64,000 bases of DNA from Haloplanus sp. HW8-1 (GTDB lineage: Archaea; Halobacteriota; Halobacteria; Halobacteriales; Haloferacaceae), in NCBI RefSeq assembly GCF_023703795.1, contig NZ_CP098518.1:1426001-1490000 (forward strand), given 5' to 3'. Both the position numbers and the translations under genes were made by a program. Numbering within the stretch: position 1 is the stretch's first letter; each line of letters opens with the position of its first letter. The notes below the pieces were generated by a model. It made no database searches. It worked only from the letters and a program-made list of their open reading frames with translations, and was not told where the DNA came from. This document shows positions 44,317 through 53,967 of the stretch, piece by piece.

Positions 44317-44358
44317 CCCATAAAAACAATACCGCTTGCGATAATGAAACTGAACTTT
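44317..44358 (-). promoter_or_regulatory. proposed cobalamin-regulon promoter element of cbiM
   Basis: Read on the minus strand: AAAGTTCAGTTT (44358-44347), a 16-nt spacer containing GCAAGC, then ATTGTTTTTATGGG (44330-44317). The same two blocks with the same 16-nt spacing precede cbiT. The second block contains the probable TATA box, the first is a near-palindrome suited to a regulator. Confidence 0.6.
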
Positions 44359-44432: not shown

Positions 44433-45362
44433 ATGGACGACGACACCGCTCGCGGGCCGGCACGATCGGGGGACTCGCCGCGGTCGTCCCGGCCGAACGG
44501 GGGCGACGAGGAGGCGTCGGGTTCCTCGGCGGTCCGCGGCGCCCCGGTCACGCCGTTCGACGAACGGACGACCGTTCCGGAGCGGTCGCGTGCCGCGGGC
44601 GGAACGGTCTATCTGGTCGGTGCGGGACCGGGCGATCCGGATCTGCTGACCGTGCGGGCGCGGCGGTTGATCGAGACGGCAGACGTGGTGTTGCACGACG
44701 CCCTCACGCGTGACACGCTCGTCGATCGCATCCCGACGTCGGCCGAGGTTGTCGACGTGGGCAAACGCGCCGGGCACAGAACCCCGCAGTCGGCGATCAA
44801 CGACCTGTTGGTCGACCACGCCGCGGTCGGCGACGCGGTCGTCCGGTTGAAGGGGGGCGATCCGTTCGTCTTCGGCCGCGGCGGCGAGGAGGCCCAGCAT
44901 CTCGCCGACCACGGCGTCGCCTTCGAGATCGTTCCGGGCGTCTCCAGCATCATCGCGGCCCCGGGGCTGGCCGGCATCCCGCTCACCCACCGGGATCTCT
45001 CCTCTCGGTTCACCGTCATCACCGGTCACGAAACGCCCGACAAGGAGGAGAGTTCGCTGGACTGGTCGGCCATCGCCCGCGAGATCACGGGCGGATCGAC
45101 GCTCGTCATACTCATGGGGGTGCGAACGCTGGAGCGGAACGTCGCGGCGCTTCGCTCCCACGGGGTCGACGCCGACGTCCCGGTCGCCCTCGTCGAGAAG
45201 GCGGCGTGGGACGGACAGCAGGTCGTCCGCGGGACCCTCGACACCATCGTCGACGTGGTCGGGGAGTCCGCCATCTCGTCACCGGCGACCACCGTCGTCG
45301 GCGACGTGGTGTCGGTCCGGGACGACGTGGCGGCCCAACTCGGCGACTTCGACCCCGCCTGA
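44433..45362 (+). CDS. cobA: uroporphyrinogen-III C-methyltransferase
   Basis: SUMT, 309 aa: methylates uroporphyrinogen III at C2 and C7 using S-adenosylmethionine, giving precorrin-2, the entry to cobalamin and siroheme. Motifs of the tetrapyrrole methylase family are clear: VYLVGAGPGDPDLLTVRA, VVLHDALTRDTLVD, VRLKGGDPFVFGRGGEEA, and VPGVSSIIAAPGLAGIPLTHR, which are specific to CobA. A 55-residue N-terminal extension rich in Ser, Arg, Gly and Glu is atypical and probably disordered; a later start is possible. It is divergent from cbiM. Confidence 0.95.
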   Translation: MDDDTARGPARSGDSPRSSRPNGGDEEASGSSAVRGAPVTPFDERTTVPERSRAAGGTVYLVGAGPGDPDLLTVRARRLIETADVVLHDALTRDTLVDRIPTSAEVVDVGKRAGHRTPQSAINDLLVDHAAVGDAVVRLKGGDPFVFGRGGEEAQHLADHGVAFEIVPGVSSIIAAPGLAGIPLTHRDLSSRFTVITGHETPDKEESSLDWSAIAREITGGSTLVILMGVRTLERNVAALRSHGVDADVPVALVEKAAWDGQQVVRGTLDTIVDVVGESAISSPATTVVGDVVSVRDDVAAQLGDFDPA

Positions 45363-45426
45363 GACCGTCCCCGCCGATCCGCGACGCCGAGACCCTCGAC
45401 GAGCGACGGCGACGCGACTCCGAGTG

Positions 45427-45468
45427 AAAGTTCACTTTTTGTAGGGCAAGCACAATTGTTTTTACGGG
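45427..45468 (+). promoter_or_regulatory. proposed cobalamin-regulon promoter element of cbiT operon
   Basis: AAAGTTCACTTT (45427-45438, an inverted repeat AAAGT-TC-ACTTT), a 16-nt spacer with GCAAGC, then ATTGTTTTTACGGG (45455-45468). The TATA-like TTTTTAC ends about 24 nt before the ATG at 45489. The arrangement matches the cbiM promoter block for block. Confidence 0.6.
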
Positions 45469-45488
45469 GGCCCGAAATGGTGGAGGTG

Positions 45489-46043
45489 ATGTCGCAGGTA
45501 GCGCTCCCGCACGATGCGAAAGCCGGGCCGACGAAACCGGAGATTCGGGCGGTGTCGCTCGGAAAGTTGGACGTGCGACCGTCGGATCACGTCGTCGACG
45601 TCGGCTCCTGTACCGGCGCGGTCACCATCGAAGCGGCCCAGCGCGCCGGCCGGGTGACGGCCGTCGAACGGAAACCCGAGCGGCTGGCCGTCACCCGGCG
45701 GAACCTCGACGAAAACGAGTACGACGCCAAGGTGTCGCTCCGCGAGGCGGAGGCACCGGCGGGGCTTCCCGAGGACGCGGACGCGATGTTCGTCGGCGGG
45801 AGCCGAAACTTCGAGGCCGTCCTCGACCACGCCGTCGAGACGGGCGTCGACCGCATCGTGATGAACGTCTCCCGCGTCGAGGTGGCGGGCGACGCCATCG
45901 ACGCCTTCCGGGACCGTGACCTGCTCTCGGAGGTGCTCCAGGTGCAGGTGAGCCACGGCTACGAACTCGCCGGCGCGACGAGTTTCGACGCCGAAAACCC
46001 CGTCTACGTCGTCGTCGGTCGGGGAGAGGGAGGGTGCGAATGA
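45489..46043 (+). CDS. cbiT: cobalt-precorrin-6B C15-methyltransferase (decarboxylating) CbiT
   Basis: CbiT, 184 aa: methylates C15 and decarboxylates the C12 acetate side chain of the corrin intermediate. It has a Rossmann methyltransferase fold with VDVGSCTGAVTIEAA as the SAM loop and AVERKPERLAVTRRNL next; GGSRNFEAVL corresponds to the family's conserved substrate-side loop. The N-terminus KAGPTKPEIRAVSLGKL is characteristic. The ATG at 45489 fits a leaderless start about 24 nt after the TATA block; in-frame ATG at 45477 is an alternative. First gene of a long, overlapping operon. Confidence 0.92.
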   Translation: MSQVALPHDAKAGPTKPEIRAVSLGKLDVRPSDHVVDVGSCTGAVTIEAAQRAGRVTAVERKPERLAVTRRNLDENEYDAKVSLREAEAPAGLPEDADAMFVGGSRNFEAVLDHAVETGVDRIVMNVSRVEVAGDAIDAFRDRDLLSEVLQVQVSHGYELAGATSFDAENPVYVVVGRGEGGCE

Positions 46044-46747
46044 CCGTCTACGGCGTCGGCCTCGGGCCCGGCGAGGCCGACCTCGTCACCGTCCGCGGGA
46101 AGCGCGTCCTCGACGCCGTCGACACCGTCTACTCGCCGGGCCGGCTCTCGCGATCGGTCGCCCGGGAGTACGTCCCCGAGTCGGCGCTTGGCGACCTCGA
46201 TTTCCCGATGACCCGCGACCCGGAGCAGCTCAGGACGGCGTGGCGGACGGCCGCGGACGTCGTCGCCGACGCGGCCGCCGACGGGGACGTGGCCTTCGTG
46301 ACGCTGGGCGACCCGAACGTCTACTCGACGTTCGGCCACCTCCGGCGAACGCTCTCGGCGTTCCATCCGGGCGTCGACGTCGAGGTCGTCCCCGGGGTGA
46401 GCGCGGTCACGGCGTTCGCGACCGCGCTGGGCGTCGAGATCGAGGCCGGCACCGGGCTCTCGCTCCGGGAGGCCGCCGACGGGGCGGCCCCGACCGGCCC
46501 GGACCGGATGATCCTGTTCAAGGTGACCGACGCCGTCGCCACCGACGAGAAGCTCACCGCCGCCGGCTACGACGTCCGCTACGGCCGTCGCCTGTTCATG
46601 GAGCAGGGTGAGACCGTCGTCACGTCGGACCCGACCGACGTGGCCGAGCGCGACTACTACACGCTCGCGTACGCCGAGAAGCGGGGGATCGAACGCGACC
46701 TGGCGACCGCCGAGTTCGACGACGCCGGGACGGAGCGGTCGGCGTGA
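46040..46747 (+). CDS. cbiL: cobalt-factor II/precorrin-2 C20-methyltransferase CbiL
   Basis: A 235-aa tetrapyrrole methylase that methylates C20 of the macrocycle. It has GVGLGPGEADLVTVRGKRVL and a YSPGRLSRSVAREYV segment, FVTLGDPNVYSTFGHL in the SAM pocket, and VPGVSAVTAFATALG, all typical of CbiL/CobI. Start ATG 46040 overlaps the cbiT stop in ATGA. Length is that of the family. Confidence 0.92.
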   Translation: MTVYGVGLGPGEADLVTVRGKRVLDAVDTVYSPGRLSRSVAREYVPESALGDLDFPMTRDPEQLRTAWRTAADVVADAAADGDVAFVTLGDPNVYSTFGHLRRTLSAFHPGVDVEVVPGVSAVTAFATALGVEIEAGTGLSLREAADGAAPTGPDRMILFKVTDAVATDEKLTAAGYDVRYGRRLFMEQGETVVTSDPTDVAERDYYTLAYAEKRGIERDLATAEFDDAGTERSA

Positions 46748-47550
46748 GCGACGCGTACACCGCCGGCGACGTGCGCGAGGGCGTGCCGTTCGTCGGCGCC
46801 GGCCCGGGCGACCCCGGTCTCCTCACCGTCACCGGCAAGCGCCTGACCGAGTCGGCCGACCTCGTCGTCCACGCGGGATCGCTGGTCAACAGCGAACTGC
46901 TGGCGGCGTACTGCGCCGACGCGGAGCAGGTAAACAGCGTCGGCAAGGACCTCGAAGAACTGGTGCCGCTGATGGCGGCGGCCTACGAGGACGGCCGGTC
47001 GGTCGTCCGACTTCACAGCGGCGACCCGGCCGTCTACGGGGCTGCACTGGAGCAGATGGACGCCCTCGAAGCCGAGGGGGTTCCGACGTACTTCGTGCCC
47101 GGCGTCACCTCGGCCTTTGCCGCCAGCGCGACGCTCGGGACGCAACTGACGCTCAACGAGGTGGCCAATCACGTCGCGTTCACCCGCCCACAGGGCACGA
47201 CCCTCTCCGCGGACGAGGACCACATCAGCGACTTCGTCGGCTTCGGCGACGTGACCACGTGCATCTACCTGGGGACACACGCCGTGAGCGAGACGATGGA
47301 TCGCCTGCTGGCGGACGGCCACGACCCCGAGACTCCCGTCGCGGTCGTCTATCACGCCTCCTGGCCCGACGAGGACGTGATCCGGGGCACCATCGACACC
47401 ATCGGCGAGAAGGTCGAGGCGGCCGGCTACCGGGCGTCGGCGCTGGTCGTGATCGGCGAGGCGGCGACCGGTGCCGGGTACGAGCGGTCCTACCTGTACG
47501 GCGACTGGGCGAACCGTAGCAACGACGACTCTACAGAAACAGATGACTGA
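46744..47550 (+). CDS. cbiF: cobalt-precorrin-4 C11-methyltransferase CbiF
   Basis: A 268-aa tetrapyrrole methylase acting at C11. It shows VPFVGAGPGDPGLLTVTGKRL, LVVHAGSLVNSELL, VVRLHSGDPAVYGAALEQM, VPGVTSAFAASATLGTQLTLNEV and TRPQGTT, all close to known CbiF/CobM. It begins with GTG overlapping the preceding TGA by 4 nt, and it overlaps cbiG by 8 nt at its end. Confidence 0.95.
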   Translation: MSDAYTAGDVREGVPFVGAGPGDPGLLTVTGKRLTESADLVVHAGSLVNSELLAAYCADAEQVNSVGKDLEELVPLMAAAYEDGRSVVRLHSGDPAVYGAALEQMDALEAEGVPTYFVPGVTSAFAASATLGTQLTLNEVANHVAFTRPQGTTLSADEDHISDFVGFGDVTTCIYLGTHAVSETMDRLLADGHDPETPVAVVYHASWPDEDVIRGTIDTIGEKVEAAGYRASALVVIGEAATGAGYERSYLYGDWANRSNDDSTETDD

Positions 47551-48499
47551 CACCACCGACAACGACTGTAACACGGCGGACAGCGACGGCGAAGTCGCCG
47601 ACGAGATAGCGATCGTCGGCTTCGAGCGCAAACTGGACACGGCCGAGGAGATCCGGGCCGGTCTCGCCGACGACTACGACCGGATCGACGTCCTCGAATA
47701 CCACGGCGAGGTGTTCGACGAGCACTGGGGCGAGTACGACTGCTTCGTCGGCCTGATGGCCAGCGGGATCGCCATGCGAAAGACCGCCCCGCTGCTCGAC
47801 GACAAGTGGGCGGATCCGGCCGTCGTCGTCGTCGACGAGGAGCTGACGTGGGCGATCCCGCTCACGGGCGGCCACCACGGCGCGAACCAGGTCGCCTACG
47901 ACCTCTCTACCCTCGGCGCCGTCCCGGCGATGACGACGGCCTCCGAGGCGGCCGGCAAGCAGGGCGTCGAGAGCCGTGCGAAGGCGCTCGACACCCACGT
48001 CGTCAACGGCGACTCGACGGTGGCGACGAACCTCGCCGTCCTCGACGAGGAACTGGGGCCCGTCGCCCGCCTCGACGGACCGCAGGCTGTCCTCGTGGGC
48101 GACGACGTGACCGTCCTGAAGCGCAACGCGGACGACGGCGTCGTCCTCGGCACGGGCAGCGTCTCCGGTGCGGACGCCGAGCAGTTCCTGACGGCCTGGA
48201 CCGAGGCGCTCGACGAGGTGGACTGGTCGCCCGCGGACGTGGAGTTCGTCGCGACGGCGACCCGAAAGGCGGACGAACCCGGTCTCGTCGAGGCCGCCGA
48301 GGAGTTCGGCGTCGGCGTGGCGTATCTCGACAAGGAGACGCTGACGGCGTTCGAGGGGCCCACCCCCTCGCGGTCGAAGGAACTAATCGGCTGGCCGGGC
48401 GTCGCCGAGGCGAGCGCCATCGCCGGCGGCCGGCACCACGACCTTCTCGTCGAGAAGCGGCGCTACGACGACGCGGTCACCGTGGCGGTGGGACGATGA
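47543..48499 (+). CDS. cbiG: cobalt-precorrin-5A hydrolase CbiG
   Basis: CbiG, 318 aa: opens the delta-lactone of cobalt-precorrin-5A and releases acetaldehyde, a step specific to the oxygen-independent pathway. An N-terminal domain with [20 protein letters not shown], the central [32 protein letters not shown] segment (cited by ends) with the GG-rich [11 protein letters not shown]-type loop ([17 protein letters not shown]), and a C-terminal domain [22 protein letters not shown] match the family. Its presence argues for the anaerobic (early cobalt) route. Confidence 0.93.
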
Positions 48500-49308
48500 C
48501 CGAACGCGGCACGCTCTCCGTCGTCGGCATCGGGCCGGGACTGCCGGGCCACATGACCCAGCGTGCCCGCGAGACCGTCGCGACCGCCGACTGCGTCATC
48601 GCCTCGAACCTCTATCAGGAGTTCCTGCGGGCGGACGGGACGCTCCCACCCGAGGACGAGGCGGGACCGACCGATCCCGAAGTCGTCCGCTCGTCGATGG
48701 GCCAGCAGGTCGAACTCACCCGCGAGGCGTTCGAACGCGTCCGTGCGGGCGAGGACGTGGCGCACGTCTCCGGCGGCGACCCGAACGTCTACGGCAAGTC
48801 CGACCTCGTGTTCGCGATGGCCGAGGAAGACGACGCGACGGACGTGCCGATCGAAATCGTTCCCGGCGTCACGGCGGCCCTCGGCGGCGCGGCGATGATG
48901 GGTGCGCCCCTCTCGAACGACTTCTGCACCGTATCGCTGTCCGATAAGTGGCGCGGGTGGGACGAGATCGAGGAGAAGCTTCGTGCCGCCGCCATCAGCG
49001 ACTTCGTGATCGTCCTCTACAACTGCTGGCGCAACTACGAGCGGGCCGTCGACGCCGTCCGCGAAGAACGAGCCGACGACGTGCCGGTCGGCATCTTCAA
49101 CGACGCCGGCCGGGGCGACGCCGGGCGAAACGTCGACGGTGAGACGTTCACCGTCACGACGCTCGGCGAGGCGGACACACACGATGAGGAGGTCGGCGGG
49201 ATGGGGACGTCCATCCTGATCGGCACCCACGAGACGGAGACCTGGCGCAACGACTACGAAACGTACCTCGTCACCCCGCGCGGCGGGCGTGACGTCGACG
49301 ACTTCTAA
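48496..49308 (+). CDS. cbiH: CbiH-family methyltransferase, first paralogue
   Basis: A 270-aa tetrapyrrole methylase assigned to the CbiH/CobJ (C17-methylation, ring contraction) family by VVGIGPGLPGHMTQRARE, HVSGGDPNVYGKSDLVF, VPGVTAALGGAAMMGAPLSNDFCTVSLSD and LYNCWRNYERAVDAV. The segment after the first loop (CVIASNLYQEFLRADG) departs from the usual VVGYxxYI pattern, which the next paralogue keeps, so this copy may have a changed reaction. It overlaps cbiG by 4 nt. Confidence 0.85.
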   Translation: MTERGTLSVVGIGPGLPGHMTQRARETVATADCVIASNLYQEFLRADGTLPPEDEAGPTDPEVVRSSMGQQVELTREAFERVRAGEDVAHVSGGDPNVYGKSDLVFAMAEEDDATDVPIEIVPGVTAALGGAAMMGAPLSNDFCTVSLSDKWRGWDEIEEKLRAAAISDFVIVLYNCWRNYERAVDAVREERADDVPVGIFNDAGRGDAGRNVDGETFTVTTLGEADTHDEEVGGMGTSILIGTHETETWRNDYETYLVTPRGGRDVDDF

Positions 49309-49310
49309 CC

Positions 49311-50225
49311 ATGAGTGATATGGACACCACCGAATCGGCGTGTGGCGGATCGACGGCCGAGACGACCGACCCCTCGGAATCGGCGTGTGGCGGATCGACG
49401 GCCGGGACGACCGAGGAGAACGTGGCGGCGACGGCCGACGACTTCGACGCCGATCCCGGTCGGCTGGTGGCCGTCGGCCTCGGTCCCGGCCAGCCGGGAG
49501 GGATGACCGCCCGAGCGACGGAGGCGCTCCGGAGGGTCGATCAGATCGTCGGCTACACGACGTACATCGACCTCCTGCCCGACGACATCGTCGACGGCGC
49601 CGAGGACGTCTACTCGACGCCGATGTGTGGCGAGGTGTCTCGGACCGAAGAGGCGGTCGACCGGACCCTCGCCGGCAACGACGTCGCTATCGTCGGCAGC
49701 GGCGACCCGAACGTCTACGCGCTGGGCGGCCTGGCGCTGGAGATCCTCGAATCCAAGGACGGGTCGGCGAGCGCAGTCGACTTCGAGGTCGTGCCCGGCG
49801 TCCCGGCCGCCCAGTCGTGTGCCGCTCGACTCGGTGCGCCGCTGGTGAACGACACCGTCAGCGTCAGCCTCTCGGATCACCTGACGCCGATGCCGACCAT
49901 CGAATCCCGCCTGCACGCGGTCGCCAAGGAAGGGTTCACGATCGCCATCTACAATCCGTGGAGTCGCAAGCGCCGGGAGAACTATCAGAAGTGCTGCGAG
50001 ATCCTGCTCGAACACCGCGACCCCGAGACGCCGGTCGGCATCGTCCACGCCGCGGGACGGGAAGAGGAGGAGACCGAAATCGTCGAACTGCAGGATCTCC
50101 CCGAACTCGGCGAGAGCGACCTCGTCGACATGACGACGACGCTTCTGGTCGGCAACGAGGAGACGTACGTCTGGGACGAGCGGATGGTGACTCCCCGGGG
50201 CTACGAACGGAAATACGAGTACTGA
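49311..50225 (+). CDS. cbiH: CbiH-family methyltransferase, second paralogue (precorrin-3B C17 type)
   Basis: A 304-aa enzyme expected to methylate C17 during ring contraction. Canonical CbiH segments are intact: VGLGPGQPGGMTARATEAL, IVGYTTYIDLL, SGDPNVYALGGLALEIL, VPGVPAAQSCAARLGAPLVNDTVSVSLSD, and IYNPWSRKRRENYQKCCEILLEHR. The first ~45 residues are an added low-complexity tail made of two near-identical 15-residue repeats (ESACGGSTA-TT), encoded by a 45-nt tandem duplication at 49332-49420. Its stop overlaps the ferredoxin start in TGATG. Confidence 0.92.
   Translation: MSDMDTTESACGGSTAETTDPSESACGGSTAGTTEENVAATADDFDADPGRLVAVGLGPGQPGGMTARATEALRRVDQIVGYTTYIDLLPDDIVDGAEDVYSTPMCGEVSRTEEAVDRTLAGNDVAIVGSGDPNVYALGGLALEILESKDGSASAVDFEVVPGVPAAQSCAARLGAPLVNDTVSVSLSDHLTPMPTIESRLHAVAKEGFTIAIYNPWSRKRRENYQKCCEILLEHRDPETPVGIVHAAGREEEETEIVELQDLPELGESDLVDMTTTLLVGNEETYVWDERMVTPRGYERKYEY
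49332..49420 (+). repeat. 45-nt tandem duplication within cbiH
   Basis: Two direct copies with a 45-nt period differ at only one of their first 39 bases. They encode ESACGGSTA-TTD/E twice, each with one Cys. The near identity points to a recent duplication or a length-variable tail. Confidence 0.85.
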
Positions 50226-50470
50226 TGTACCGAATCGAACTCGACCGGGCGGCCTGCGACGGCATCTTCGCGTGTCTCGTGCGCGACGAGCGGTTCGTCG
50301 AGGACGACGCCGGTCTGGCGACGGTCGATCCGGCGGCCGACGGGGTCGTCGACGTCGATCGGAGGGACGACCGGATCGTCGCGACGTTCGAGGGGAACGC
50401 CGCCGACGCGAAACTGGCTGCCGAGGCCTGTCCGCCGGGAGCCATCACCGTCCGGGAGGGGTCCGAGTGA
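50225..50470 (+). CDS. [3Fe-4S]-type ferredoxin in the cobalamin operon
   Basis: An 81-aa small ferredoxin. The cysteines follow the single-cluster pattern C11-x5-C17 ... C69-P70, with Ile14 where a [4Fe-4S] ferredoxin has its second ligand, so a [3Fe-4S] cluster is predicted. The ACPPGAI ending is typical. It follows cbiH directly (1-nt overlap) and precedes the unassigned LAGLIDADG-like gene with a 4-nt overlap. A role as electron carrier for ring contraction or another corrin step is inferred from position; some CbiH enzymes (CbiH60) carry a fused Fe-S domain. Confidence 0.75.
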   Translation: MYRIELDRAACDGIFACLVRDERFVEDDAGLATVDPAADGVVDVDRRDDRIVATFEGNAADAKLAAEACPPGAITVREGSE

Positions 50471-51126
50471 GCCCCGACACCCCATCGGACCTGCTGACGT
50501 GTCACCCCGAGACGGCCTACTTCTGGGGCCACGTCGCCGGCGGCGGCGACGTTGGGACGGACGAACTCACCGTCCGGGCCCCGGACGAGGGGTGTGCGGA
50601 GCGCCTCGTCGCCGTCGCGGGCGGCGGCGACGTCGACCGGCGCCGGACCGAACGCCCCTACGCCCACGACACCTCGATCACCCGTGTCGAGGACGAGTAC
50701 CGCGTCACCGTGACCGGCGACGTGGCCGGGCGCGCGAGCGCCGCCTTCGGCCTCCCGATGGGCGACGAGCGCGGCGGCTATCGGTTCGACGCCCTGGCCG
50801 ACGCCGACCGACAGCTCCTCCGCGGGCTGCTCGAGAGCTGTGGGACGGTCTGTTTCAAGTCCTCGGGCACCGTCGGCATCTCCTTCGTCCACGACGACCG
50901 GACGCTCCTCGAAACCGTCGTGGGTCTCCTCGGGGACTGTCCAGTCGACGCGCCGACCGGCGAGATCGACGAGACGTCGTCGGGCGGATACTGGTTCGGC
51001 CTCGACGACGAGGCGGCCGGGCCGTTCGGACGCTGGGTGTACGACGGGAGCGAGGGGACGGGCCTGTACGCACCGACGCGCCGCCGGAAACTGCTGCGGA
51101 GTCTGGAGCGAGCCGAGAGCGAATGA
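50467..51126 (+). CDS. unassigned cobalamin-operon protein, LAGLIDADG-like fold suspected
   Basis: A 219-aa soluble protein with no recognised cobalamin activity. It reads as two related halves, each beginning with a helix motif like that of LAGLIDADG endonucleases: AYFWGHVAGGGDV (17-29) and QLLRGLLESCGTV (116-128). Each is followed by beta strands (ELTVRA; VGISFVHDDRTLLETVVGLL) and a strand-helix segment (YRVTVTGDVAGRASAAF; YWFGLDDEAAGPFGRWVYDG). The helix-ending acidic residues needed for DNA cleavage are absent (Gly and Cys instead), so nuclease activity is unlikely. It is fully coupled in the operon: 4-nt overlaps on both sides. The fold assignment is a judgement by eye. Confidence 0.6.
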   Translation: MSPDTPSDLLTCHPETAYFWGHVAGGGDVGTDELTVRAPDEGCAERLVAVAGGGDVDRRRTERPYAHDTSITRVEDEYRVTVTGDVAGRASAAFGLPMGDERGGYRFDALADADRQLLRGLLESCGTVCFKSSGTVGISFVHDDRTLLETVVGLLGDCPVDAPTGEIDETSSGGYWFGLDDEAAGPFGRWVYDGSEGTGLYAPTRRRKLLRSLERAESE

Positions 51127-52334
51127 CCGGGGAGACGCCGCTCGACGACGATGCCGTCCTCCTGGTCGGTCACGGCTCGCGCCGGGAGAAGTCGAACGAA
51201 CAGGTCCGCAGGCTCGCCGCGAAACTCGAAACCCGGCTCGAACTCCCGGTCGACGCGGCCTATCTAGAACTCGCGGAGCCGGCTATCGGCGAGGCCATCG
51301 ACACGCTCGCGCCCACCTGCCGGACGCTGACGGTCGTTCCGCTGTCGCTGTTCGGCGCGAGCCACGTCAAAAACGACGTGCCGCTCGCCATCCAGACCGC
51401 ACGCACCCGGCACAAGGACCTGACGATTCACTACGGCTCCCACCTCGGCGTCCACCCGTCGCTCGTCGACCTGCTCGACGACCGGGTGCGCGCCGTCGAA
51501 GCCGACCTCGGCGTCGACCGGGAGACGGCGGACGTGAGCGTCGTCGTCTGTGCCCGGGGGTCGAGCGACCCGGACTCGAACGCCGATGTCCACAAACTCG
51601 CCCGCCTCCTCTACGAGGGCCGCGAGTTCGACCGCGTCGACGCGTCGTTCATCGGCGTGACGTCGCCACGACTCGACGACACGCTCCACACCGTCACCAA
51701 GGACCGACCGGACGCGGTGGCGGTCGTCCCGTACATGCTCGGCGACGGGACGCTGACGGGGCGCATCGTGGACGGCACCGGGGCGTTCGACGACGAGTAT
51801 CCCTACGTCGACGCGGGCGCGGGAGACCCCCTGGGGACGGACGACCGCGTCGTCGACGTCCTCGCGGACCGCTGGAAGGCGGCGCGCTCCGACAGCGTCG
51901 AGATGTCCTGTGACACCTGCAAGTACAAGGTGGAACTCGCGGGCTACGAGGAGGATCAGGGGGGCGCGCGGGCCATGCTCCGCTCGCTCGTCCACCAGGC
52001 CGAACACGCCGACCGGGAGTCGGTCGACGACGACCCGCACGTCCACGACGCCCCCGAGAAACACGTCGCAGTCTGTACGAACCAGACCTGTGCCGCGAGC
52101 GGTGCGACCGCGGTCATCGAGGGGTTACGGCAGGGGGTCCGGGCAGCCGAGGACTGCGACGCCCGCGTCACCCGCACCTCCTGTCTCGGCCAGTGTGGCG
52201 ACGGCCCCATAGTCGCCGTCTACCCCGACGGCATCTGGTACGGCGGCGTCACGGCCGACGACACCGATCGCATCGTCTCGTCCCACCTCGATCGGGACCG
52301 CATCGTCTCCGACCTCGTACACCAGACACTATAA
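51123..52334 (+). CDS. cbiX: sirohydrochlorin cobaltochelatase CbiX fused to a [2Fe-2S] ferredoxin domain
   Basis: A 403-aa protein. The N-terminal ~260 residues are CbiX, the ATP-independent enzyme that inserts Co2+ into sirohydrochlorin: His17 in LLVGHGSRREKSNE and His81 in LSLFGASHVKNDVP are the metal-handling histidines, and a second, degenerate half follows (VVVCARGSSDPDSN). After a linker with CDTCKYK and an HVHDAPEKHVAV stretch, the last ~85 residues form a thioredoxin-like [2Fe-2S] ferredoxin with Cys318, Cys323, Cys354 and Cys358 (CTNQTC...CLGQC). The start overlaps the previous stop by 4 nt and the end overlaps the DUF3209 gene by 1 nt. Confidence 0.93.
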   Translation: MTGETPLDDDAVLLVGHGSRREKSNEQVRRLAAKLETRLELPVDAAYLELAEPAIGEAIDTLAPTCRTLTVVPLSLFGASHVKNDVPLAIQTARTRHKDLTIHYGSHLGVHPSLVDLLDDRVRAVEADLGVDRETADVSVVVCARGSSDPDSNADVHKLARLLYEGREFDRVDASFIGVTSPRLDDTLHTVTKDRPDAVAVVPYMLGDGTLTGRIVDGTGAFDDEYPYVDAGAGDPLGTDDRVVDVLADRWKAARSDSVEMSCDTCKYKVELAGYEEDQGGARAMLRSLVHQAEHADRESVDDDPHVHDAPEKHVAVCTNQTCAASGATAVIEGLRQGVRAAEDCDARVTRTSCLGQCGDGPIVAVYPDGIWYGGVTADDTDRIVSSHLDRDRIVSDLVHQTL

Positions 52335-52711
52335 TGGCTTGCGCAGAACTCGAAGCGCTACGACTCGCACTGATGAACCTGAACGGCACCGTCGACGAGA
52401 GTGTGCGGCAACACGCTGAAGCGGAGATCGGCGACGAACTGGAGGCGAACGGCCCGATCGCCGCCCTCGCGAACGCCACGACGCTGGACGAGATCCAGCG
52501 ACACCTCGACGCGGCACTGATCGACCTCGAGGAGGCGGCGATGGCGGCCGACCCCGACGACCCCGACGGAGCGTACCTCCGGGGGCGGGTCGTCGCCGTC
52601 CGGGACGCGAAGCGGACGGTCCGTCGGCTCCGTCGCCGGACCGACGACCTGCTCGACGACCTCGGCGAGGCTCACCACACCCTCCACGAGACGTTCCCGA
52701 CCGAGGAGTGA
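52334..52711 (+). CDS. DUF3209 protein of the cobalamin operon
   Basis: A 125-aa, mostly helical acidic protein that matches the DUF3209 family, found beside cobalamin genes; no activity is known. It starts CAELEALRLALMNLNG, contains a GPIAALANATTLDEIQRHLDAALIDLEEA core and ends with a long helix (VRRLRRRTDDLLDDLGEAHHTL). It has a single Cys (Cys3) and a His pair near the end. Coupled to cbiX (TAATG, 1-nt overlap) and to the next gene (4-nt overlap). Confidence 0.8.
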   Translation: MACAELEALRLALMNLNGTVDESVRQHAEAEIGDELEANGPIAALANATTLDEIQRHLDAALIDLEEAAMAADPDDPDGAYLRGRVVAVRDAKRTVRRLRRRTDDLLDDLGEAHHTLHETFPTEE

Positions 52712-53967
52712 CGACGGTACGGATGCTCACCGACGAACGGCGACGTCCGCTCGGCGACCTCGACCCCGCGGAGAGTCGTCACAACTGGGCCCGGTCGGCG
52801 GCGACCGTCGCCGACGGGACCGTCGTCGCCGGGGGCGTCGGCGGCCGCCTGACGGCCGAGCGACCGGACGCGACGCCGGCCGAACGGTGGTCCACCACCG
52901 CCGCCGACCCGTCGGCCATCGTCGACAGCTACGTCGTGTCGCTGGCGGCACGCGACGGCACACTCGTCGCCGGCGAGCGAGGCCCCGACGGCCACGTCGC
53001 CGCGCTCTCGGCGGCCACCGGCGACCGCCGATGGCGGTACGCGACGGCCGCGGATGTCGGAACGGCGACCACGGAGTCGCTCACCTTCCAGCCGTACGTC
53101 GTCGACGTGGCAGTCGGGGGGAGGACCGTCGCCGCCGCGAGACGGTACGACCGCGACGGCGAGAGCCGCGACTGGTCGAGCGTCGTCCTCGGCTTCGATC
53201 CCGACGGCGACGTTCGGTGGCGCTACCCCGCCCGTGCGGCACCGCTCGCACTCGACGCCCGCCACAGCCGCGTCGCCGTCGCGTACAACCGGTGTACGGA
53301 CGCCCACGCACACGGACTGGTCGTCCTCGATGCCGACACCGGCGCCCCCGTGATGAACTGGGACCCCGGTACCGAGGGTGACCGCCGCGTCGGGGACGTG
53401 GCGTTCCTCGGCGACGGCGTCGCCGTCGCGAGCCACGGCGACAAGCACGGCTACCTGCTCGACGCCGACGGCGGCGAACGCTGGCGCGTCGACCTCGCGA
53501 GCGAGCGACGCGTCGGCGGCGAGACGGTCTACGCCTACCCCACGCACGTCCGTGCCGCCGGCGACGCCGCCGTCTTCGTGACGGGCAACACCTACGCCGA
53601 GTCGACCCGCGACCCGGACGCACGCCACCCACGCGAGCACACGATCGCCGCCGTCGACGACGGCGACCTGACGTGGACGCACCCCGTCGGCGGCTTCGCC
53701 CGCGACGTCGCGGCCGACGGGTCGCTCGTCGCCGTCCCCTCGGCACAGCACTTCCGCGAGCGGCGGGCCGACACGCACGCCGTCCACCTCTTCGACGCCG
53801 ACCGGGGCCACCTCGACTCGCGGTCGATCCCCGGAATCGCTGCGGCCGTGGCACTCGACGGCGACACGCTCGCGGTCGTCGAGGAACCGGTCGAGTACCA
53901 CGACGAGGGCGTCACGCACGGCGCCTTCCGCCTGCACACGTGGCGGGTCGACGCCGACGAGCGCTGA
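52708..53967 (+). CDS. PQQ-like beta-propeller protein of the cobalamin operon
   Basis: A 419-aa cytoplasmic protein (no signal peptide) built from about seven repeats of the beta-propeller kind: VAALSAATGDRRWRYA, VLGFDPDGDVRWRYPA, GYLLDADGGERWRVDL and IAAVDDGDLTWTHPVGG, each with the Asp-Gly and Trp of PQQ/WD-type blades. No catalytic motif is recognised. The GTG start overlaps the DUF3209 stop by 4 nt, so it is translated with the operon. It may be a scaffold or sensor for pathway enzymes, but this is only inference. The stop faces chlID with 4 nt between. Confidence 0.75.
   Translation: MTTVRMLTDERRRPLGDLDPAESRHNWARSAATVADGTVVAGGVGGRLTAERPDATPAERWSTTAADPSAIVDSYVVSLAARDGTLVAGERGPDGHVAALSAATGDRRWRYATAADVGTATTESLTFQPYVVDVAVGGRTVAAARRYDRDGESRDWSSVVLGFDPDGDVRWRYPARAAPLALDARHSRVAVAYNRCTDAHAHGLVVLDADTGAPVMNWDPGTEGDRRVGDVAFLGDGVAVASHGDKHGYLLDADGGERWRVDLASERRVGGETVYAYPTHVRAAGDAAVFVTGNTYAESTRDPDARHPREHTIAAVDDGDLTWTHPVGGFARDVAADGSLVAVPSAQHFRERRADTHAVHLFDADRGHLDSRSIPGIAAAVALDGDTLAVVEEPVEYHDEGVTHGAFRLHTWRVDADER

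What the first reader, a model, noticed from the sequence alone, without database searches (positions are those of the whole stretch)
50467..51126. Possible domesticated LAGLIDADG-fold protein inside the cobalamin operon
The unassigned 219-aa protein shows two halves, each with a helix ending in Gly-x-Val (GHVAGGGDV; GLLESCGTV) followed by strand, helix and strand segments. This resembles the pseudo-symmetric layout of LAGLIDADG homing endonucleases. The cleavage Asp/Glu residues are replaced by Gly and Cys. It is not beside an intein or intron; it overlaps its operon neighbours by 4 nt on both sides. If correct, a DNA-binding fold has been recruited to B12 synthesis, perhaps as the missing regulator of the shared promoter element, or as a tetrapyrrole-binding scaffold.
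Basis: inference. Interest (0 to 1): 0.7.

Follow-up and report, generated by a model that had tools for sequence, protein, structure and literature searches.

The report
Retired homing-endonuclease fold in B12 operon
A protein of unknown function made from the vitamin B12 gene cluster of salt-loving archaea is confidently predicted to have the fold of a selfish DNA-cutting enzyme whose cutting site is dead; it occurs only in haloarchaea that make B12 from scratch, so a former gene parasite appears to have been put to permanent work in B12 synthesis, though its exact job is still open.

Summary
The 219-aa protein (window 50467-51126 +) gives a confident model (pLDDT 93, pTM 0.90) with two alpha-beta-beta-alpha-beta-beta-alpha repeats. 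It matches LAGLIDADG endonucleases and WhiA over its full length (I-Tsp061I Z 15.9, WhiA Z 14.7). Weak Pfam LAGLIDADG_3 hits in 43 of 64 relatives and one haloarchaeal intein agree. The catalytic acids are gone: D/S/G at position 26, Cys in 63/64 at position 125.
It is the orthologue, by gene order, of Haloferax HVO_B0055 ("function unassigned", 2021). Among 391 haloarchaeal genomes it is in 211 of 217 with cbiG and in none of 174 without. It sits between a ferredoxin gene and cbiX, usually with 4-nt overlaps.
Five also lack the ferredoxin, DUF3209, the PQQ-like protein and the CbiX Fe-S extension; in the sixth a short CbiX fills its slot. It is not the obvious filler of the CbiD/CbiJ gap. I favour an accessory role at ferredoxin/CbiX (about 0.4); a nucleic-acid-binding regulator is the main rival.

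The parts
50467..51126 (+). stand-alone LAGLIDADG-fold protein (219 aa), orthologue of HVO_B0055 by gene order
   Evidence: HVO_B0055 placement from the gene list in PMC8305020
50506..50544 (+). LAGLIDADG-type helix 1 (residues 14-26, containing AYFWGHVAGG); catalytic position 1 = Gly26 (D, S or G in relatives)
   Evidence: secondary structure; column counts; alignment to intein LVGLVFGDGDI
50788..50841 (+). LAGLIDADG-type helix 2 (residues 108-125, ending LLRGLLESC); catalytic position 2 = Cys125 (63/64), Glu123 invariant
   Evidence: aligns with intein FLRGLFDADGSVC
50842..50892 (+). conserved strand pair GTVCFKSSGTVGISFVH (residues 126-142) with Gly126, Cys129, Val136, Gly137, Ser139 and Val141 invariant
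51073..51123 (+). conserved basic C-terminal helix PTRRRKLLRSLERAESE (Arg205, Lys208, Ser212 invariant)
50225..50470 (+). ferredoxin, Fer4_15 single-cluster type (HVO_B0056 by gene order), 4-nt overlap with the LAGLIDADG gene
51123..52334 (+). CbiX cobaltochelatase with C-terminal thioredoxin-like [2Fe-2S] domain; 4-nt overlap with the LAGLIDADG gene
52337..52711 (+). DUF3209 protein, absent together with the LAGLIDADG gene in five of six exception genomes (an upstream in-frame start may add a few residues)
52708..53967 (+). PQQ-like beta-propeller protein, absent together with the LAGLIDADG gene in five of six exception genomes
44433..50225 (+). cobA, cbiT, cbiL, cbiF, cbiG, cbiH1, cbiH2 of the same cluster
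45447..45462 (+). cbiT promoter element CAAGCACAATTGTTTT just upstream of cbiT; present in genomes with and without the LAGLIDADG gene
44323..44338 (-). second copy of the element (CAAGCGGTATTGTTTT) upstream of cbiM

Best explanation
Shown: the gene encodes a stand-alone LAGLIDADG-fold protein without the two catalytic acids, conserved and fixed in the de novo cobalamin operon of haloarchaea. Inferred: it descends from an archaeal LAGLIDADG homing endonuclease and is no longer a nuclease. Inferred, less certain: it works as an accessory protein at the cobalt-insertion step. In this model it is co-translated between the ferredoxin and the Fe-S-extended CbiX and contacts one or both of them, or their cobalt or corrinoid cargo. 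The former DNA-reading sheet and the former metal site, now lined by Cys125, Cys129 and Glu123, would serve as the binding surface. The identity part I hold at about 0.93; the confidence given is for the functional part.
For: Fold: pLDDT 93.2, pTM 0.90; Foldseek's top 50 hits are all LAGLIDADG proteins or WhiA; VIA Z 15.9 over 183 residues (I-Tsp061I), 14.7 over 181 (WhiA). Sequence: PF14528 in 43/64 members, best E 3.2e-5, hitting either half, a few at or over the curated cut-off; profile match to an intein of the same genome through both motif helices (prob 83-89, E about 1e-5 to 1e-6). Link to B12: 211/217 cbiG-positive and 0/174 cbiG-negative haloarchaea. Link to CbiX/ferredoxin: order fdx - LAGLIDADG - cbiX in all 80 first-scan loci; 4-nt overlap with fdx in 93 of 108 loci, with cbiX in 57. 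Five of six LAGLIDADG-lacking clusters also lack fdx, DUF3209, PQQ-like and the CbiX Fe-S extension. In the sixth (G294) a CbiX without the extension starts in the exact 4-nt-overlap slot after fdx, while genus-mates G378 and G464 keep the LAGLIDADG gene there. Promoter element independent of the protein.
Against: No direct evidence of contact with CbiX or ferredoxin. One LAGLIDADG-positive locus (L047) has a CbiX with a His-rich tail and no Fe-S domain, so the link to the Fe-S extension is not strict. In G134 the divergent homologue (33% identity) lies away from the cbi genes. The LAGLIDADG-fold proteins described in the papers read here act on nucleic acids, so a purely protein- or metal-directed role would be unusual.
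Confidence: 0.4

Rival explanations
1. It is a DNA- or RNA-binding regulator of the cobalamin operon (WhiA-like use of the fold), sensing cobalt, a corrinoid or redox state through the modified metal site.
For: Fold precedent: WhiA is a transcription factor with a dead LAGLIDADG domain (PMC3781837), and in Mycoplasma that domain binds a DNA motif and ATP (PMC11701221). Presence strictly tied to the operon. Conserved basic C-terminal helix with invariant Arg205 and Lys208. A conserved operator-like element exists before cbiT and cbiM.
Against: The element is kept in all six cbiG-positive genomes without the protein. Both sheets are net acidic on average (N -4.7, C -2.5), and the 60-residue stretch after the second motif has 2 K/R against 10 in a haloarchaeal intein. 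The match covers only the LAGLIDADG fold, with no extra HTH domain. A divergent winged-helix DUF7839 gene next to cbiT in several lineages is an alternative regulator.
Confidence: 0.33
2. It is an enzyme, or part of one, that fills the missing CbiD (C1 methylation) or CbiJ (precorrin-6A reduction) step of the haloarchaeal pathway.
For: PMC8305020 names the four unassigned cluster genes, this one among them, as obvious candidates for the two gaps. A ferredoxin lies next to it.
Against: G008 and G060 lack CbiD, CbiJ and all four candidate genes yet keep the other cbi genes of the cluster; G299, G500 and G542 also lack the four genes and CbiJ (CbiD not tested there). No SAM- or nucleotide-binding fold; the whole chain is LAGLIDADG.
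Confidence: 0.08
3. It binds RNA or assists translation or splicing in the operon, a maturase-like use of the fold.
For: Maturases bI3 and I-AniI share the fold.
Against: No intron in the operon; no positive evidence.
Confidence: 0.06
4. It is a still active free-standing homing endonuclease lodged in the operon.
For: Fold; Asp at position 26 in 36 of 64 relatives.
Against: No member has both acids; Cys at position 125 in 63/64. Vertical-looking distribution tied to cbiG in 211 genomes, no relatives found in phages or viral contigs, almost always the same operon slot.
Confidence: 0.02

Closest known systems
I-Tsp061I and I-DmoI, archaeal intron-encoded monomeric LAGLIDADG endonucleases (PDB 2dch, 5a0w)
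   Same: Fold over the full length; size (about 190-204 aa); one chain with two repeats
   Different: Catalytic acid of motif 2 replaced by Cys; no intron; host gene fixed in a biosynthetic operon
WhiA / DUF199 (PDB 8dy9, 3hyi)
   Same: Host-adopted, catalytically dead LAGLIDADG domain (Z 14.7 over 181 residues; PMC3781837)
   Different: No separate C-terminal HTH; archaeal; single operon context; chain ends with the LAGLIDADG fold
Haloarchaeal intein LAGLIDADG domains (PF14528), e.g. the one at C1:2652234-2652803 of the same genome
   Same: Profile match through both motif helices
   Different: Lie inside very long open frames (probably inteins in host proteins); that one keeps GDG and DADG motifs and more basic sheets
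Yeast HO endonuclease
   Same: Host-domesticated member of a homing-element family (PMC7282813, abstract)
   Different: HO is an active endonuclease for mating-type switching; this protein lacks the acids
HVO_B0055 of Haloferax volcanii (PMC8305020)
   Same: Same gene by order, between HVO_B0054 cbiX1 and the unassigned HVO_B0056
   Different: Listed there only as function unassigned; no fold named in the passages read

Membership tests
LAGLIDADG fold superfamily | Two alpha-beta-beta-alpha-beta-beta-alpha repeats in one chain (or one repeat per dimer subunit) | tested here: met
   Confident model, element order in both halves; full-length structural matches, top 50 all LAGLIDADG or WhiA
LAGLIDADG fold superfamily | Sequence-profile relationship to LAGLIDADG families | tested here: met
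   PF14528 in 43/64 relatives, best E 3.2e-5, two members printed above and one at the 22.5-bit cut-off; the window protein alone gives no hit
LAGLIDADG homing endonuclease (active) | Acidic residue (D/E) ending each of the two motif helices | tested here: not met
   Position 26 D in 36/64 only; position 125 C in 63/64, A in 1; none has both
LAGLIDADG homing endonuclease (active) | Encoded in an intron or intein, or shows mobile distribution | tested here: not met
   Operon gene with 4-nt overlaps, strictly tied to cbiG; no viral relatives found
LAGLIDADG homing endonuclease (active) | Site-specific DNA cleavage | not testable with these tools
   needs in vitro assay
[quoted passage not shown]
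   219 aa, the LAGLIDADG fold spans residues 4-219; no HTH hit in Pfam for the window protein
CbiD (PF01888) / CbiJ (PF02571) | Family profile match | tested here: not met
   No Pfam match of this kind; no CbiD in the haloarchaea of the phylum sample, no CbiJ over the cut-off in 16 haloarchaeal genomes tested
Transcription regulator of the cbiT/cbiM element | Element and protein co-occur | tested here: not met
   Element present in all six cbiG-positive genomes without the protein
CbiX/ferredoxin accessory protein | Physical or functional association with CbiX or ferredoxin | not testable with these tools
   Only genomic linkage tested

The most novel reading that the evidence does not exclude
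A selfish homing-endonuclease fold has been recruited not as a gene regulator but as a component of a metabolic pathway. The former DNA-cleaving metal site, now with Cys125, Cys129 and Glu123, and the former DNA-reading sheet handle cobalt or a corrin intermediate between ferredoxin and the CbiX chelatase.
Probability: 0.25. Interest if true: 0.85.

Novelty: new variant of a known kind. Interest (0 to 1): 0.62.

Why it matters
Few host proteins are known to come from LAGLIDADG endonucleases, and those described in the papers read here act on nucleic acids. A dead, single-domain member locked into the B12 operon of more than half of the haloarchaeal genomes sampled gives a fold, conserved residues and a genetic context to a gene listed as unassigned in a model organism. 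It makes its function directly testable in Haloferax volcanii. It also bears on an open question: the two missing steps of haloarchaeal cobalamin synthesis are shared by lineages that lack this gene and three other proposed gap-fillers, so those steps are probably done by other genes.

Tried and rejected
phmmer and profile search of PDB sequences gave nothing real. Pfam on the window protein alone and NCBIfam on it and its relatives gave nothing. hhalign of the N-half against the C-half was not significant, so the internal duplication rests on the structure. The single-sequence model of the divergent G134 homologue was poor (pLDDT 54); its order of helices and strands is similar but it is not used as evidence. 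The regulator idea was tested through the promoter element and not supported. The gap-filling enzyme idea was tested through the exception genomes and not supported. My first ferredoxin queries were in the wrong frame and the search was repeated correctly. No phage or viral-contig relatives were found. The hits marked '1 TGA inside' in many genomes probably reflect the profile running past the stop codon; not followed up.

Full report
Observation. The ORF at 50467-51126 + is a real gene: 219 aa, GTG start, 4-nt overlaps with the upstream ferredoxin (50225-50470) and the downstream cbiX (51123-52334). It is single copy in its genome, has at least 111 relatives in the species-level genome collection (the 80 retained are archaeal, nearly all named as haloarchaea), and is under purifying selection against four relatives (dN 0.11-0.27, dS 0.37-1.0).

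Fold. A 64-sequence alignment gave an AlphaFold2 model with mean pLDDT 93.2 and pTM 0.90. Its elements run helix-strand-strand-helix-strand-strand-helix twice. Foldseek against the PDB returns I-Tsp061I, archaeal and yeast inteins, I-DmoI, the bI3 maturase and WhiA; the 50 rows shown are all LAGLIDADG proteins or WhiA. VIA-align gives Z 15.9 over 183 residues for I-Tsp061I and 14.7 over 181 for WhiA, covering residues 4-219. Sequence agrees: the window protein alone hits nothing in Pfam, but 43 of 64 relatives hit PF14528 LAGLIDADG_3 (best E 3.2e-5), some through the N-half and some through the C-half, a few at or over the curated cut-off. hhalign aligns the family to one intein of the same genome through both motif helices (prob 83-89).

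Dead active site. That intein alignment puts Gly26 and Cys125 at the two catalytic positions. Over 64 relatives position 26 is D/S/G/N/A (36/23/3/1/1) and position 125 is Cys in 63; Glu123, Gly126 and Cys129 are invariant. No relative has both acids. The likely DNA-facing residues of the C-half sheet (Thr127, Cys129, Gly137, Ser139, Val141, Trp176; facing inferred from strand alternation) are invariant or nearly so. Sheet regions are net acidic in the family (N -4.7, C -2.5 on average), whereas the last helix is basic (+4.0); after the second motif the window protein has 2 K/R in 60 residues against 10 in the intein.

Context. In all 80 first-scan loci the order is ferredoxin - this gene - cbiX. 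The 4-nt overlap with the ferredoxin gene is kept in 93 of 108 loci, that with cbiX in 57 (some genomes are represented by more than one locus there). Among 391 haloarchaeal genomes of at least 90% completeness, cbiG is in 217 and this gene in 211; comparing the two lists, every genome with the gene has cbiG, and none of the 174 without cbiG has the gene. In the wider phylum sample it was found only in the same order. It is the gene listed as HVO_B0055, function unassigned, next to cbiX1 in PMC8305020 (placement by gene order).

The exceptions. Six cbiG-positive genomes lack it. In five (G008, G060, G299, G500, G542) cbiH2 is followed directly by a short CbiX; ferredoxin, DUF3209, PQQ-like and the CbiX [2Fe-2S] extension are also missing from the cluster. 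In the sixth (G294) ferredoxin and the long CbiX are present, and a short CbiX starts in the exact slot of this gene, whereas genus-mates G378 and G464 keep the gene. One named genome (L047) keeps the gene beside a CbiX whose tail is His-rich instead of Fe-S. G134, in another family of the same order, has a 33%-identical homologue away from the cbi genes, between two cation-efflux genes and next to a rhodanese gene. In Bacillus megaterium CbiX the C-terminal Fe-S centre and His-rich region are dispensable for cobalt insertion and were proposed to serve metal storage and delivery (PMC7689651).

Regulator test. The shared promoter element reads TTGnnCTA-n3-CAAnCAnAATTGTTTTA; its ATTGTTTT part begins 29-35 bp before the cbiT start codon. 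The core pattern occurs exactly twice in the own genome, before cbiT and cbiM, and the control pattern not at all. It is intact in G008, G060, G299, G500 and G542, and in G294 as a one-base variant that its gene-carrying relative G464 shares. The element therefore does not depend on this protein. A divergent winged-helix + DUF7839 gene next to cbiT in several lineages is another candidate regulator.

Gap test. PMC8305020 proposes the four unassigned cluster genes as candidates for the missing CbiD and CbiJ steps. CbiD was found in no haloarchaeon of the phylum sample, and CbiJ scored below the cut-off in all 16 haloarchaeal genomes tested, with and without this gene. Five genomes lack all four candidates in the cluster and still carry the rest of it. 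This argues against the candidates as the general gap-fillers, unless these lineages do not complete the pathway.

Reading. Identity (catalytically dead, stand-alone LAGLIDADG-fold protein adopted by the host) about 0.93. Function: an accessory role at ferredoxin/CbiX best fits the operon slot, the joint absence and the replacement in G294, but it rests on genomic context only (0.4). A nucleic-acid-binding regulator remains a serious rival (0.33), because WhiA shows the fold can act this way and the WhiA LAGLIDADG domain can bind both DNA and a small ligand (PMC3781837, PMC11701221).

Prior knowledge. The library search for LAGLIDADG with cobalamin biosynthesis in haloarchaea listed no paper linking them, and HVO_B0055 appears in one paper only. 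Public annotation calls the gene 'cobalamin biosynthesis protein' or 'hypothetical protein'. The library is partial, so an earlier mention cannot be excluded.

Noticed in passing
window 45447-45462 (+) and 44323-44338 (-): Operon-specific promoter element CAAnnnnnATTGTTTT close before the cbiT start codon and before cbiM; exactly two copies in the genome, found before cbiT throughout the cbi-positive haloarchaeal loci examined, including those without the LAGLIDADG gene.
   Followed up: partly
L191 1643-2452 (-), also L105, L110, L116, L117, L119, L124, L135, L136, L142, L145: Winged-helix (MarR-like) + DUF7839 gene divergent from cbiT in several lineages; candidate regulator of the element.
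   Followed up: partly
L128, L129, L163, L164, L165: Haloarchaeal cbi clusters lacking ferredoxin, LAGLIDADG protein, DUF3209, PQQ-like protein and the CbiX Fe-S extension as a set; could mark a different lifestyle.
   Followed up: partly
L131 10703-11644 (+): Second, short CbiX in the exact operon slot of the LAGLIDADG gene in genome G294.
   Followed up: yes
L047 5729-6781 (+): CbiX with a long His/Asp-rich tail in place of the [2Fe-2S] domain.
   Followed up: no
L126 7826-8422 (-): Divergent homologue (33% identity) between two cation-efflux genes and next to a rhodanese gene; keeps RGLLESCGTIC and SSGNYWF motifs.
   Followed up: partly
window 52337-52711 (+): DUF3209 protein has a sub-threshold match to the MEDS sensory domain (E 0.0017).
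   Followed up: no
C1:2652234-2652803, C1:1616815-1617306, C1:2807262-2809019 and others of the same genome: Several LAGLIDADG_3 hits within very long open frames (1277-2299 aa), probably inteins, in the same genome.
   Followed up: partly
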